Below, piece by piece: positions 43,452-48,369 of a stretch of DNA of 64,000 nucleotides; the first letter of the stretch is position 1; each line of letters opens with the position of its first letter. The notes beneath the pieces are model-generated. The model had not been told where the DNA came from, searched no databases, and was given only the letters and a program-made list of their open reading frames with translations. Source of the stretch: Phormidium ambiguum IAM M-71 (GTDB taxonomy: Bacteria > Cyanobacteriota > Cyanobacteriia > Cyanobacteriales > Aerosakkonemataceae); contig NZ_MRCE01000007.1 of the NCBI RefSeq assembly GCF_001904725.1, forward strand, positions 1-64,000. Reading direction: 5' to 3'. Position numbers and translations under genes: made by a program.

Positions 43452-44480
43452 CTAGCGGGCTGTTTGCCAACGATCCAAAACATCCTTAATTACAACTTCC
43501 CTAATCCAAGTTTGCAGCACAATCAAAATTGGTAAGGCTAAAAACAAACCTAAAAATCCAAAGAAAACCCCAAAAGCTGTCAAAATAGCCAAAGTATAAG
43601 CAGGCAAAAGAGATACCTCCTTTTCCATCACTATAGGTGTAACAAAATTACCTTCAACTTGTTGAATGAAAGTATAAAGTATGATTACTAAAATAGCTTT
43701 TATTGGAGAATATAATAAAGCCAGCAACAGTGGCGGAACTACACTTAAAATTGCGCCAATATAAGGAATTAAAGCCAAAATAGTTGCCAAAAGTCCATTC
43801 ACAAAAGGCAATGGCACATCTAAAAACCATAACCCAATAGTGGAAGTTATCCCAATAAAAGTCATACTCAACGCTACACCTTTTAACCAACCAATTAAAC
43901 CTTTTTCACATTCAGTAAGAATCTGCTCTACTCGCTGACGATAAAACGCCGGAAACAGGGAGATAAATACTTTCCGGTAAGGTTGTGGATTGACTAAAAG
44001 CATTATTGTTAAAACAACGATTAATAAAAAGTTTAAAACTAAAGTTAAAGAGTTTGATAATACAAGATATAAATTAGTAATTCCCCAAGCAAAAAATCGT
44101 TGTAGTTCTGTAGTCAAATCGTTGAGGCTAGGAATATTATTAACAAATTGGCTGGGAACTCTGGCTTGTAACCAATTAGTCCAAGTTTGAATTTTATCTA
44201 TGCCAAAAGGTATCAGTTTGATTAGTTCTTGAAATTGTTTAGTTAAAGGTGGGAAAATTAATAAAAAAGATAAAACTACAATTGTGATTACTATCCCAAT
44301 AGTTAATGTAAGAGCAATCCCTCTTTTTGCTCCTGACTGTTGCAGTCGTTTTACTACTCGATTAAGAGCCGTTGCGAAAACGACAGATGTAAAAAATATC
44401 AGGATAATTTCTCTAATTTCCCAAAGGATATAGAGAGATACAATTAAAGCGAAAAAACCGATCCATTTCCCTAAACTCAT
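43452..44480 (-). CDS. AI-2E family transporter (PerM/YdiK type permease)
   Basis: From MSLGKWIGFFALIV the protein has 342 residues; a longer frame to 44534 overlaps the upstream HAD gene. About seven membrane helices are visible, including ALIVSLYILWEIREIILIFF and ILVLNFLLIVVLTIMLLV. The family has many members, and true AI-2 export is shown for few. It follows the HAD-like gene by 11 bp, so both are probably transcribed together, and is 34 bp upstream of the ASRT gene. Confidence 0.9.
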   Translation of the reverse strand: MSLGKWIGFFALIVSLYILWEIREIILIFFTSVVFATALNRVVKRLQQSGAKRGIALTLTIGIVITIVVLSFLLIFPPLTKQFQELIKLIPFGIDKIQTWTNWLQARVPSQFVNNIPSLNDLTTELQRFFAWGITNLYLVLSNSLTLVLNFLLIVVLTIMLLVNPQPYRKVFISLFPAFYRQRVEQILTECEKGLIGWLKGVALSMTFIGITSTIGLWFLDVPLPFVNGLLATILALIPYIGAILSVVPPLLLALLYSPIKAILVIILYTFIQQVEGNFVTPIVMEKEVSLLPAYTLAILTAFGVFFGFLGLFLALPILIVLQTWIREVVIKDVLDRWQTAR

Positions 44481-44491
44481 AAAGCCGCCTT

Positions 44492-44851
44492 TTACTCGCC
44501 AACGCTTAATTGTGCTAAAGAAATTTGTTTGCACATACTTTCAACAGCTAAAGTAAGAGAGCGCATTAATTCCGAATCTTCCTCATATTCTGCGGGAGCT
44601 AAGTTAACAACTCGCTGACTTTCAGAAATACCAAGTTCCCGGCTCCATGCTTCGGCTATCAGGGCGTAAAATCGAGCCATGATATTATCCCAACCTTGAT
44701 TAACTAAAGGTTGAATTTGTTGTTGCCGAAATTCTTGATGATCGATCGATAAACTTTCCAGCAAATGATCGACCGTATCCGGTACGAGAGTATCATCGAA
44801 GTCAAAGACAACAGCGATGTAATTAGAAAGGGGTTTAGTTGCGAGAGACAT
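44492..44851 (-). CDS. short HAD-like protein lacking later motifs
   Basis: From the ATG at 44851 (MSLATKPLSNYIAVVFDFDDTLVPD) the protein has 119 residues. Motif I, DFDDTLV, is present with both Asp residues. Motifs II, III (Lys) and IV (DD or GDxxxD) are not found; the remaining sequence (WSRELGISESQRVVNLAPAE, then SELMRSLTLAVESM) is helical and may be a cap fragment or unrelated. It is probably a truncated HAD hydrolase. It lies 18 bp after the broken ZIP gene. Confidence 0.6.
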   Translation of the reverse strand: MSLATKPLSNYIAVVFDFDDTLVPDTVDHLLESLSIDHQEFRQQQIQPLVNQGWDNIMARFYALIAEAWSRELGISESQRVVNLAPAEYEEDSELMRSLTLAVESMCKQISLAQLSVGE

Positions 44852-44869: not shown

Positions 44870-45604
44870 TTAGCCTAAATAAATTGAAAGCAGGGCAAAT
44901 AATGCAAAACCTCCTACAAAGGTAAATGTTTCTTTATAAGTTTCTTTTTCTTTAGCAACTGCTTCGGGAACCATATTTTCAATTACTACTGTTGTGAGTA
45001 TTCCTGCGGTAAAAGCCAGCAATACAAACTTAATTAATTCTGGTTGACCGCGTACTGTCCAATAGCCAATAGTTGTGCCCAAAAGAGCAGGTAATAAAAA
45101 ACCAAAAGATACGATTCGGCGTTGTTGGTTTGAAATACCTTTTTCTTTGAAACTGGCAAGGGTGACTAATCCTCCGGGAATGTTAGCCATTATTTGACCT
45201 AAAGCTAAAATTAAACCTAATCCAAAAGCGATGCTAGAACCAGTTCCTACCATTAATCCATCACTAAACAAATCAACTCCTACACCTAAAAAAATTAACC
45301 AAGCTGTCGCTTTTTTCTTAACTTTACTAACCCGGTTTTGTACCCATTTAATTAACCAACGAATGACAACGAAAAAGCCCCCTCCACCAACAAAAGCTCA
45401 AATCACTAACCAAGGGGGATTTGCTTGCAAAATTTGGGGCATTAATTCGACTCCGACAACTGCTAAAGCGATACCTGCGGCTGCATGAAGAGCTAAACTC
45501 AAGTTACGGTTGGATAGGGCTAAATATTCGGCCCACCATCCTCCTAAAATGCTGCCGATCGCAGGTAAAGTAGATAAAGCTAAAGCAATCAGATAATCGG
45601 TCAT
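44870..45604 (-). pseudogene. ZIP family metal transporter split by an in-frame TGA
   Basis: Two open frames are in the same phase: 45604-45398 (MTDYLIALALSTLPAIGSILG) and 45271-44870 (MFSDGLMVGTGSSIAFGLGL, with VLLAFTAGILTTVVIENMVPEA). The intervening 126 bp, read in the same frame, encodes convincing protein (AFVGGGGFFVVIRWLIKWVQ, then WLIFLGVGVDLFSDGL). The only interruption is a TGA at 45398-45400. Together they form a normal 244-residue zinc/iron permease with HAAAG and the typical GxxxDL. It may be a recent pseudogene, a sequence error, or (least likely) a recoded codon. Confidence 0.85.
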
Positions 45605-45663: not shown

Positions 45664-47085
45664 TTAACCTCCACTACCTGAACCAATAATTCCAGTTAAT
45701 TGCAATAAGTAAATGACAGCAAACACGGCAAAAAATAGCCCAGCAATTACAGTTCCACCCAAAGACCATATTGAGGGTTTCAGTTCTTTAGGTAACATTC
45801 GATGATTTAAATAAAGCGTTAATCCGGTAACAACTGGAATATGCGCTGCTTCAATTCCTCCTGCTAATTGAAGTAACCCAACTGGTTGACCAAAAATCAG
45901 GTAAATTGCGATCGGTAAAGCTGCTACCAAAACGATAATGTAGGTTTTTTGGAGGAACTTTTCATTTGTCCAACGACCGCGCAAACCAAAGCCTTGTAAG
46001 ATGATTTGAGTGCCATCAGCAAACATTCTGCCAAAGCCATCTTGAACGGAAAGAGTAGTGCTACAAAAGGTAATAAATACGATCGCAATCATAAACCAAA
46101 AACCAAATGGCCCCCAAAGATCGCCTAATAAATTACCTAACGTTTCTGCCACTTGATTTTCTTTCGGAACTAAACCTTGAGGACGCAGTAATTCTCCGCC
46201 AAGAATTAAGAAAGCTAAAGCTGCTAACAGCGCACCAACAACCGCTAAAGTGTTAGATAAAGTCATTAACGTTACCCAACCATGTAATCGCTTTTTCTCT
46301 TCATCACTAATTTCATTAGCTTGAAGAGGTTGTTCCTGATTTAATCCCGCAGCACCATATCCTCTAGCTTCTACCCAATAGGAATACCACATTAATCCGG
46401 CGGCTCCTGCTAACATAAAACCTAGCCAAGGTAGAATTTCTTGATATTTCACATCGGCAGGTATTTGTGGAAGCAAACCTGCGGCTAATTGTCTCACATT
46501 GGGAAATACCAGAGTAGCCGCAACAACAACTGCAATTGTGCGAGCAATACCTATATAAGAGGAGATTTTTTCTACTACGTTATATTGCCCCAGAAAAACA
46601 ATTGCTGCGGTGACTAAGATAATAATTACTGTCCAAAGTTTGACCGTTCCTCCTGTTACTAAAATTAAGGCAGTGGCGGCGGCTCCTGCGAGTCCGGCAA
46701 CAGTGGCGATCGCCACAAAAAACTGTGGTACTAAAATCCACCAAATTGCCCAATTTTTCGGCCCCGGAAGTCGTTTAAAACCTTCTAAAATTGTCGCCCC
46801 AGTACAAACCGAAAACCGCCCAACTTCTCGATTAATAAACCACTTTAAAACTACTGCTGCTAGTAACGCCCATAACAAAGAATAACCGTAAAATGCGGCA
46901 ATTCTTGGAGTAAAAAGTAACTCACCAGAACCAGCTGCTGAAAGCATCCATAAAAAACTCGGCCCTAACCATAAAAACCTTGTCCATCCGGTTGGTGGTT
47001 TTGGTATTATTTGTTTGTTTTCCTGTTGTTCATTACCTGTCTGTGTTGAGGCAGAAAGATGATTTTTATTTGTCATTTTTGCCAT
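45664..47085 (-). CDS. Nramp-related divalent metal transporter family protein
   Basis: The 473-residue membrane protein has about 11 helices and the Nramp fold. Recognisable segments include LGPSFLWMLSAAGSGELLFTP at the first helix and a sixth-helix region. The canonical DPGN of helix 1 is replaced by AAGSGEL, and no MPH-like metal-site motif is seen in helix 6 (LMLAGAAGLMWYS or similar). It is thus an Nramp-related clade with atypical substrate selection. It is upstream of the broken ZIP gene on the same strand, with 59 bp between. Confidence 0.85.
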   Translation of the reverse strand: MAKMTNKNHLSASTQTGNEQQENKQIIPKPPTGWTRFLWLGPSFLWMLSAAGSGELLFTPRIAAFYGYSLLWALLAAVVLKWFINREVGRFSVCTGATILEGFKRLPGPKNWAIWWILVPQFFVAIATVAGLAGAAATALILVTGGTVKLWTVIIILVTAAIVFLGQYNVVEKISSYIGIARTIAVVVAATLVFPNVRQLAAGLLPQIPADVKYQEILPWLGFMLAGAAGLMWYSYWVEARGYGAAGLNQEQPLQANEISDEEKKRLHGWVTLMTLSNTLAVVGALLAALAFLILGGELLRPQGLVPKENQVAETLGNLLGDLWGPFGFWFMIAIVFITFCSTTLSVQDGFGRMFADGTQIILQGFGLRGRWTNEKFLQKTYIIVLVAALPIAIYLIFGQPVGLLQLAGGIEAAHIPVVTGLTLYLNHRMLPKELKPSIWSLGGTVIAGLFFAVFAVIYLLQLTGIIGSGSGG

Positions 47086-47526: not shown

Positions 47527-48330
47527 TTATTGAGAAACAGCAGAGGGATATACTTGTGTAGCAATTACCACAGGTTTATTGCTGTATTCTGCTTCCAGTT
47601 TTCTCTTCAAATTCAAGTCCCAAGTTATGTCATAGTCTCGTTCAATTTCTGCCACTACAAACGGACGTACAACACCTGTTACAACTACTTTTTCACCATC
47701 ATTAATTGCTGCTTGAGGAGTGGCGTGTAACACTAACAAGTTTTCGCCACCAACTAATTGATCTTCATCCAATGTAAAGGTGTTTGGGCCAGTAATATTT
47801 TCAACTTCACCATTTATGGCGATCGATCTACCGTAATATTGGGTAGGATTCTTACTAACTTCACCCGGTTTAGGAGATAAAGCAATTGATTGAGCAATAA
47901 TCGCTGGTTTATTCTCGTATTCTCTGTATAGATTCGGTTCCAATGTTAAATTGTACTCGCGCTCAATCTCAGAAACTACTAAGTTGCGAACTGTACCTGT
48001 TACCTGAACTTCTGTATTTTCAGGTAATAAAAAAGGTTGTCCTGAAGCATTAACTACCAGAATTGGTTCGTTACGAAAAAATTGTTGATCGCTAATAGTA
48101 AAAGATGCAGGGCCTACTTTTTGCACAGGTTCACTTCTCACTGTTACCGTTTTACCAATTAGTTGATTAGTATTATCGCTTACTTCTTGGGTGGTAACAT
48201 TTCCTGTGGCGTTAGGAACTGTGGCTGTTTCCTGTTCATTGGCGCAAGCAGGAAGCAATACAGCTGCTAATGCTAAGGCAAAAATTTTCTTTGGTTCCCA
48301 CAAGTTTTTGATTACGTTATGTCTCTTCAT
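47527..48330 (-). CDS. lipoprotein with two OB-fold-like repeats
   Basis: The ATG at 48330 has an excellent ribosome site (AAAGGAGGATC), preferred over an upstream start at 48369. The signal ends in the lipobox LLPAC near residue 27, so the mature protein is lipid-anchored. Two similar units follow: IGKTVTVRSEPVQKVGPASFTI to VQVTGTVRNLVVSEIEREY, and YYGRSIAINGEVENITGPNTFTL to VVVTGVVRPFVVAEIERDY. Both end in EIERxY. No catalytic motifs are seen. It could be a periplasmic binding or assembly factor of the envelope. Confidence 0.8.
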   Translation of the reverse strand: MKRHNVIKNLWEPKKIFALALAAVLLPACANEQETATVPNATGNVTTQEVSDNTNQLIGKTVTVRSEPVQKVGPASFTISDQQFFRNEPILVVNASGQPFLLPENTEVQVTGTVRNLVVSEIEREYNLTLEPNLYREYENKPAIIAQSIALSPKPGEVSKNPTQYYGRSIAINGEVENITGPNTFTLDEDQLVGGENLLVLHATPQAAINDGEKVVVTGVVRPFVVAEIERDYDITWDLNLKRKLEAEYSNKPVVIATQVYPSAVSQ

Positions 48331-48369
48331 AGATGAAGATCCTCCTTTAATTTTTCTGTGGATTGGCAC

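What the first reader, a model, noticed from the sequence alone, without database searches (positions are those of the whole stretch)
45398..45400. ZIP transporter interrupted by a single in-frame TGA
The frame is otherwise open over 244 codons, and the region after the stop continues to encode a normal transporter. A single change from CGA, TGG or similar would restore it. It is an apparently very recent knock-out of a metal transporter, or a sequencing error.
Basis: seen in the sequence. Interest (0 to 1): 0.55.

Follow-up and report, generated by a model that had tools for sequence, protein, structure and literature searches.

The report
Recently stopped cyanobacterial ZIP transporter gene
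A cyanobacterial metal-transporter gene carries a single stop signal a quarter of the way in, most likely a recent inactivating mutation (or a sequencing error), next to another gene that has also lost its middle; this is ordinary gene decay.

Summary
On the minus strand, frame 45604..44870 has 244 codons plus a terminal TAA and one internal stop: codon 69, TGA, at 45398-45400. The read-through product is a full-length ZIP-family protein, 73-75% identical to uninterrupted orthologues. A branch test finds the window copy about as constrained as its relatives: omega 0.11 against 0.09, and 0.12 after the stop, with neutrality rejected. So constraint was lost recently, or the base is wrong, or the stop is read through. 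I judge a recent natural knock-out most likely, because the next gene, a HAD-type phosphatase, has lost codons 68-234 of 286, with no second copy found. The upstream Nramp gene is intact. "Normal transporter" also needs qualifying: this copy belongs to a cyanobacterial clade that, by alignment, lacks two acidic TM5 residues matching metal ligands in the solved ZIP, yet is under purifying selection. That clade is the more interesting by-product. A consensus error cannot be excluded without reads. The stop itself is ordinary.

The parts
44870..45604 (-). ZIP-family transporter reading frame, 244 codons + TAA, interrupted at codon 69
45398..45400 (-). in-frame TGA, codon 69, inside predicted helix 64-92
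   Evidence: 15 of 15 loci of its own clade have Leu here (9 distinct proteins; some genomes were fetched twice)
45398..45604 (-). 68-codon ORF that would be made if the stop is obeyed
44870..45397 (-). part after the stop, codons 70-244 and TAA, still constrained on the window branch (omega 0.12)
45173..45184 (-). codons 141-144 (NIPG) aligned with BbZIP D208-E211 of TM5; both acidic ligands replaced, as in the rest of its clade
44975..44977 (-). codon 210 (Asn); Glu or Asp in 57 of 60 loci outside the clade (2 unread, 1 stop)
44495..44851 (-). remnant of a HAD-type phosphatase gene: codons 1-67 joined in frame to codons 235-286; 167 codons missing at the 44650/44651 junction
45664..47085 (-). 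intact Nramp-family transporter gene upstream, same strand (473 aa)
43452..44534 (-). AI-2E family transporter downstream; the ORF as listed overlaps the end of the HAD remnant, an internal ATG at 44480 avoids that

Best explanation
The ZIP gene was a working, selected gene until recently and has been inactivated by one nonsense substitution in codon 69, probably in a leucine codon. Translation would stop just inside the third predicted helix, leaving a 68-residue fragment that cannot form a ZIP pore. The distal gene of the same run (HAD phosphatase) has lost its middle by an in-frame deletion, possibly across a short direct repeat, while the proximal Nramp gene is intact. The organism keeps two other ZIP-family genes, so loss is probably tolerated. 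Shown: the stop, the deletion relative to intact relatives, uninterrupted orthologues, constraint on the branch. Inferred: that the base is real, that no useful protein is made, that the genes form one operon, the leucine ancestor, and the tolerance.
For: One internal stop in 244 codons. Orthologues at 73-75% identity are uninterrupted, and 61 of 75 relative loci have a single match without a stop over more than 200 residues. Window-branch omega 0.110 (background 0.094); fixing it at 0.22 costs 2dlnL 4.5 and at 1.0 costs 18.5; codons 70-244 alone 0.121, omega=1 costs 17.7. A test with two more taxa gave 0.105 against 0.100, 2dlnL 0.02. The HAD copy lacks codons 68-234 and no other copy was found in the genome at E<=0.001; L014, L005 and G006 have full 286-aa copies. 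tRNA-Sec search: 10 hits, none over cut-off; the 8 that had loci are ordinary tRNAs. RF2 is present and TGA ends 7 of the 32 ORFs of 250 aa or more in the window. Other ZIP genes at C18 and C15.
Against: Nothing here separates a real base from a consensus error. No second genome of the species was found; the one same-genus genome found lacks the gene. A gene free to decay should also gather other damage; no further stop or frame break is seen in this frame. The branch test cannot see a loss of constraint confined to the last few per cent of a long branch (about 1.05 changes per codon).
Confidence: 0.7

Rival explanations
1. The TGA is a consensus or assembly base error and the gene is intact.
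For: Constraint on the branch is that of an intact gene; no other lesion in the frame; TGA is one base from TTA, the commonest Leu codon of this gene, 23 of 37 Leu codons.
Against: Consensus substitution errors are rare in good contigs (recalled, not tested); the adjacent HAD gene carries an independent lesion, which makes real decay here likelier. The TGA is recovered again, but from the same assembly, so that is no independent check.
Confidence: 0.2
2. The stop is real but tolerated: TGA is read through (or suppressed) often enough to make a working protein.
For: Omega after the stop is low, 0.12, and not distinguishable from background.
Against: The position is not conserved as a stop: 0 of 72 relatives with a readable residue there have one. 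RF2 is present; no selenocysteine tRNA over cut-off, the best hit being a tRNA-Ser (one search scored 150 of 323 candidates). TGA is an ordinary terminal stop in the window, 7 of 32 ORFs of 250 aa or more. No recoding element and no suppressor tRNA was searched for specifically.
Confidence: 0.06
3. The gene has been split into two products, the second restarting at the TTG of codon 112 (45271), which has an AGGAG upstream.
For: AGGAG lies five bases before that TTG; a 133-aa ORF follows.
Against: The restart would begin inside predicted helix 99-125 and drop D111; codons 70-111 would then be untranslated, yet the region 70-244 as a whole is constrained (70-111 was not tested alone).
Confidence: 0.03

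Closest known systems
ZIP (Zrt/Irt-like, SLC39; Pfam PF02535) transporters, solved example BbZIP (5TSA, 8CZJ, 7Z6N)
   Same: Pfam Zip over cut-off; the model made with Trp put at the stop matches ten BbZIP chains at TM-score 0.73-0.85 normalised by the query.
   Different: Interrupted by TGA. TM5 residues aligned with ligands D208 and E211 are Asn and Gly; TM4 ligands H177, N178, E181 align with Asp, Leu, Asp, as in its relatives in general.
Nonsense pseudogenes of bacteria (general notion, recalled)
   Same: One internal stop in an otherwise homologous frame, intact orthologues in relatives.
   Different: No sign of decay beyond the stop in this frame; the base is not confirmed by reads.
Nramp-ZIP-HAD gene run of Gloeocapsopsis crepidinum LEGE 06123 (L005/L021)
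   Same: Same gene order and strand.
   Different: There ZIP and HAD are full length and the ZIP keeps Asp and Glu in TM5.

Membership tests
ZIP transporter (PF02535) | Profile match over the curated cut-off | tested here: met
   52.8 bits against 35.1, with TGA read as W; the part after the stop alone also passes, 48.4 bits
ZIP transporter (PF02535) | ZIP fold like BbZIP | tested here: met
   Predicted model, pLDDT 84.5, nine helical segments (the sixth and seventh short, possibly one broken helix), matches 10 BbZIP chains at E<=0.001; assumes a residue at codon 69
ZIP transporter (PF02535) | Binuclear metal centre ligands of TM4/TM5 as in BbZIP | tested here: not met
   D208 aligns with Asn, E211 with Gly, H177/N178/E181 with Asp/Leu/Asp; by alignment only
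ZIP transporter (PF02535) | Divalent metal transport | not testable with these tools
   needs an assay
Nonsense pseudogene | Internal stop where orthologues have a sense codon | tested here: met
Nonsense pseudogene | Relaxed selection after the lesion | tested here: inconclusive
   no relaxation detected; upper bound of branch omega between 0.18 and 0.22
Nonsense pseudogene | Stop confirmed in independent reads or strains | not testable with these tools
   no reads; the only same-genus genome found lacks the gene

The most novel reading that the evidence does not exclude
The gene is still under selection with its TGA: ribosomes read through codon 69 enough to supply a transporter of the clade with the altered metal site, making this a tolerated stop in a working cyanobacterial gene.
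Probability: 0.05. Interest if true: 0.55.

Novelty: new member of a known kind. Interest (0 to 1): 0.17.

Why it matters
By itself it matters little: one more gene caught early in decay, or a base to correct. It suggests that Nramp-linked metal genes come and go piecemeal within one family of cyanobacteria: G006 has Nramp and HAD adjacent with no room for ZIP, and the same-genus G001 has no close copy of any of the three. The by-product deserves a look: a well-supported cyanobacterial ZIP clade, under purifying selection, without the acidic TM5 residues that hold the metals in the solved ZIP. That is a test case for what the site really needs.

Tried and rejected
First thought: the altered TM5 and TM7 residues (PEG to PGG, EEM to ENM) are decay on top of the stop (note). 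Rejected: the same residues (Gly or Thr at 144) are shared by relatives L014-L020 and L063-L070, 15 loci with uninterrupted frames, one clade with support 100/98 in the tree.

Selenocysteine or recoded TGA: judged unlikely. Two of the 10 sub-threshold tRNA-Sec hits had no locus and were not checked, and one search scored 150 of 323 candidates. Its controls rang in 14 of 14 known genomes, over the cut-off in 5, so sub-threshold hits mean little.

Chance open frame: rejected.

Split gene with restart at TTG 45271: judged unlikely.

Whether the Nramp-ZIP-HAD run was gained or lost in this genus: not settled. G006 carries its best matches to AI-2E (50%), Nramp, HAD and the gene at 47527-48369 on one contig, C25, while G001 has no close copy of Nramp, ZIP or HAD.

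Tree order inside the clade is unsure: the codon model slightly prefers window with L014 (by 1.2 lnL over window with L015), the protein tree pairs the window with L070, the same protein as L015 (support 100/76). The branch test used window with L014 only. For Nramp five topologies were compared; for HAD one was assumed.

Papers: four searches. Only passages of PMC9873690 were read; the rest were seen as listings. The listings show nothing on this clade, which is weak evidence that it is undescribed.

Rows dropped: L037 was left out of A2 because its translation holds a stop (error). A2 holds 21 of the 49 loci. In the tree, 14 of 75 loci without a single match free of stops over 200 residues were left out and identical rows were merged, giving 49 rows with the window. 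In the codon test the L016-like group (12 loci) was thinned to four and two. L066 and L068, on the reverse strand in their loci, were not placed properly in the alignment, which was not used further; both were aligned by tblastn. No genome-wide count of interrupted genes was made.

Full report
Observation. Reading the minus strand from ATG at 45604 gives 244 codons and a terminal TAA at 44872-44870. The only internal stop is codon 69, TGA, at 45400-45398. Under a Markov model of the local 10 kb, 0 of 20000 frames of this length had one stop or fewer; the mean was 14.8. The stop lies in predicted helix 64-92.

What the gene is. With the stop read as Trp, the protein passes the Pfam Zip cut-off, 52.8 bits against 35.1. 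The predicted model (pLDDT 84.5; 22 rows; Trp at codon 69 is my assumption) matches ten BbZIP chains in the PDB, TM-score 0.73-0.85 by query length. NCBIfam gives only a weak ZupT match, 39 bits against a cut-off of 252.

Neighbours. On the same strand lie an intact Nramp-family gene upstream (45664-47085; NCBIfam Nramp_1, 148 bits against 50), then the ZIP, a HAD-type phosphatase remnant (44495-44851) and an AI-2E family transporter. In L014, filed as Nostoc cf. edaphicum on a contig labelled coverage 2.99, two pieces with glucodextranase N-domain and GH15 matches lie between ZIP and HAD. In G006 (same family) HAD and Nramp are adjacent with no room for a ZIP, and its best matches to the AI-2E gene and to the gene at 47527-48369 are on the same contig.

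A second lesion. The window HAD aligns with codons 1-67 and 235-286 of the 286-codon gene, and nothing between; no other copy was found in the genome at E<=0.001. The two parts are joined in frame. In L014 both sides of the missing stretch carry GAAGAAT, a short direct repeat that could have mediated the loss; the repeat is less perfect in L021 and G006. On the retained codons the window branch has omega 0.135 (background 0.062; 2dlnL 2.0 against one omega; omega=1 costs 5.4), so this lesion too looks fairly recent, though the test is weak.

Timing. I fitted a codon model (GY94-type, F3x4, my own script) with its own omega for the window branch. With eight taxa, window 0.105, rest 0.100, 2dlnL 0.02. 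With six taxa, window 0.110, rest 0.094; fixing the window at 0.18 costs 2.4, at 0.22 costs 4.5, at 1.0 costs 18.5. Codons 70-244 alone give 0.121, with omega=1 costing 17.7; codons 1-68 give 0.071 with little power (omega=1 costs 3.2). Nramp gave 0.060 against 0.082, 2dlnL 1.6. If the branch were a mixture of constrained and neutral time, roughly a tenth of it at most could be neutral; that is my estimate from the interval, not a fitted value. So the frame was a selected gene for nearly all of its separate history. The place of the window within the clade is unsure (window with L014 in the codon model, with L070 in the protein tree); the test used the first.

What stood at codon 69. Of 75 relative loci, 72 have a readable residue there: 53 Leu, 6 Ile, 5 Val, 5 Ala, 2 Thr, 1 Gly; none Arg, none Trp and none a stop. 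Within its own clade 15 of 15 loci (9 distinct proteins) have Leu. TTA is the commonest Leu codon of this gene, 23 of 37. A Leu ancestor is the natural inference.

Stop or recoding. RF2 is encoded. The tRNA-Sec search scored 150 of 323 candidates and gave 10 hits, none over the cut-off (best 45.6 against 47); the 8 with loci are ordinary tRNAs. TGA ends 7 of the 32 window ORFs of 250 aa or more. Read-through is not excluded but has nothing specific for it except the lack of relaxation.

Real or error. I could not separate these. Relatives are other species, the one same-genus genome found lacks the gene, and no reads are held. The lesion in the adjacent gene tilts me to a real mutation. Two other ZIP-family genes with open frames in the genome (C18, 274 aa; C15, 252 aa) make loss tolerable, by inference.

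By-product. A profile alignment to BbZIP puts window D111, L112, D115 opposite H177, N178, E181, and A140, N141, G144 opposite Q207, D208, E211. A 2023 paper names these six among the eight residues of the binuclear centre (passages of PMC9873690). Of the 60 loci outside the window's clade, 54 have Asp or His at 141 and 54 have Glu at 144. The clade with Asn at 141, Gly or Thr at 144 and Asn at 210 (15 loci: 3 Gly, 12 Thr) is one side of a branch with support 100/98, 10 rows with the window. Five proteobacterial loci (L049, L052, L053, L054, L060) also have Asn-Gly, with Asp at 210, and lie elsewhere in the tree, so the change may have arisen twice; the tree is rooted at its midpoint only. Background omega near 0.1 over trees that are mostly this clade says these are working genes. 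What they carry is unknown.

Verdict. A real feature and an ordinary one: most likely a fresh nonsense mutation in a metal-transporter gene within a partly decaying gene run, with sequencing error as the main rival.

Noticed in passing
window 44495-44851 (-): HAD-type phosphatase gene with an in-frame loss of 167 of 286 codons; no other copy found in the genome; short direct repeat at the breakpoints in relative L014.
   Followed up: yes
window 45173-45184 and 44975-44977 (-); L014-L020, L063-L070: Cyanobacterial ZIP clade with Asn and Gly/Thr in place of TM5 acidic ligands and Asn at position 210, under purifying selection; five proteobacterial loci show Asn-Gly separately.
   Followed up: partly
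L014:3437-4890: Two pieces with glucodextranase N-domain and GH15 matches between ZIP and HAD, probably a broken gene.
   Followed up: partly
L041:5001-5747, L051:5001-5660, L061:2714-3267: Relatives of this ZIP whose tblastn matches also contain stops (L041 two, L051 one, L061 one in one piece): other copies may be broken too.
   Followed up: no
L014 (NZ_JADEXF010000193.1): Closest orthologue sits on a short contig labelled coverage 2.99 in an assembly named Nostoc; it could be a contaminant.
   Followed up: no
window 45664-47085 (-): The Nramp protein has GSGE (in LSAAGSGELLFTP) where the solved NRAMPs it matches align DPGN; its metal site may be unusual.
   Followed up: no
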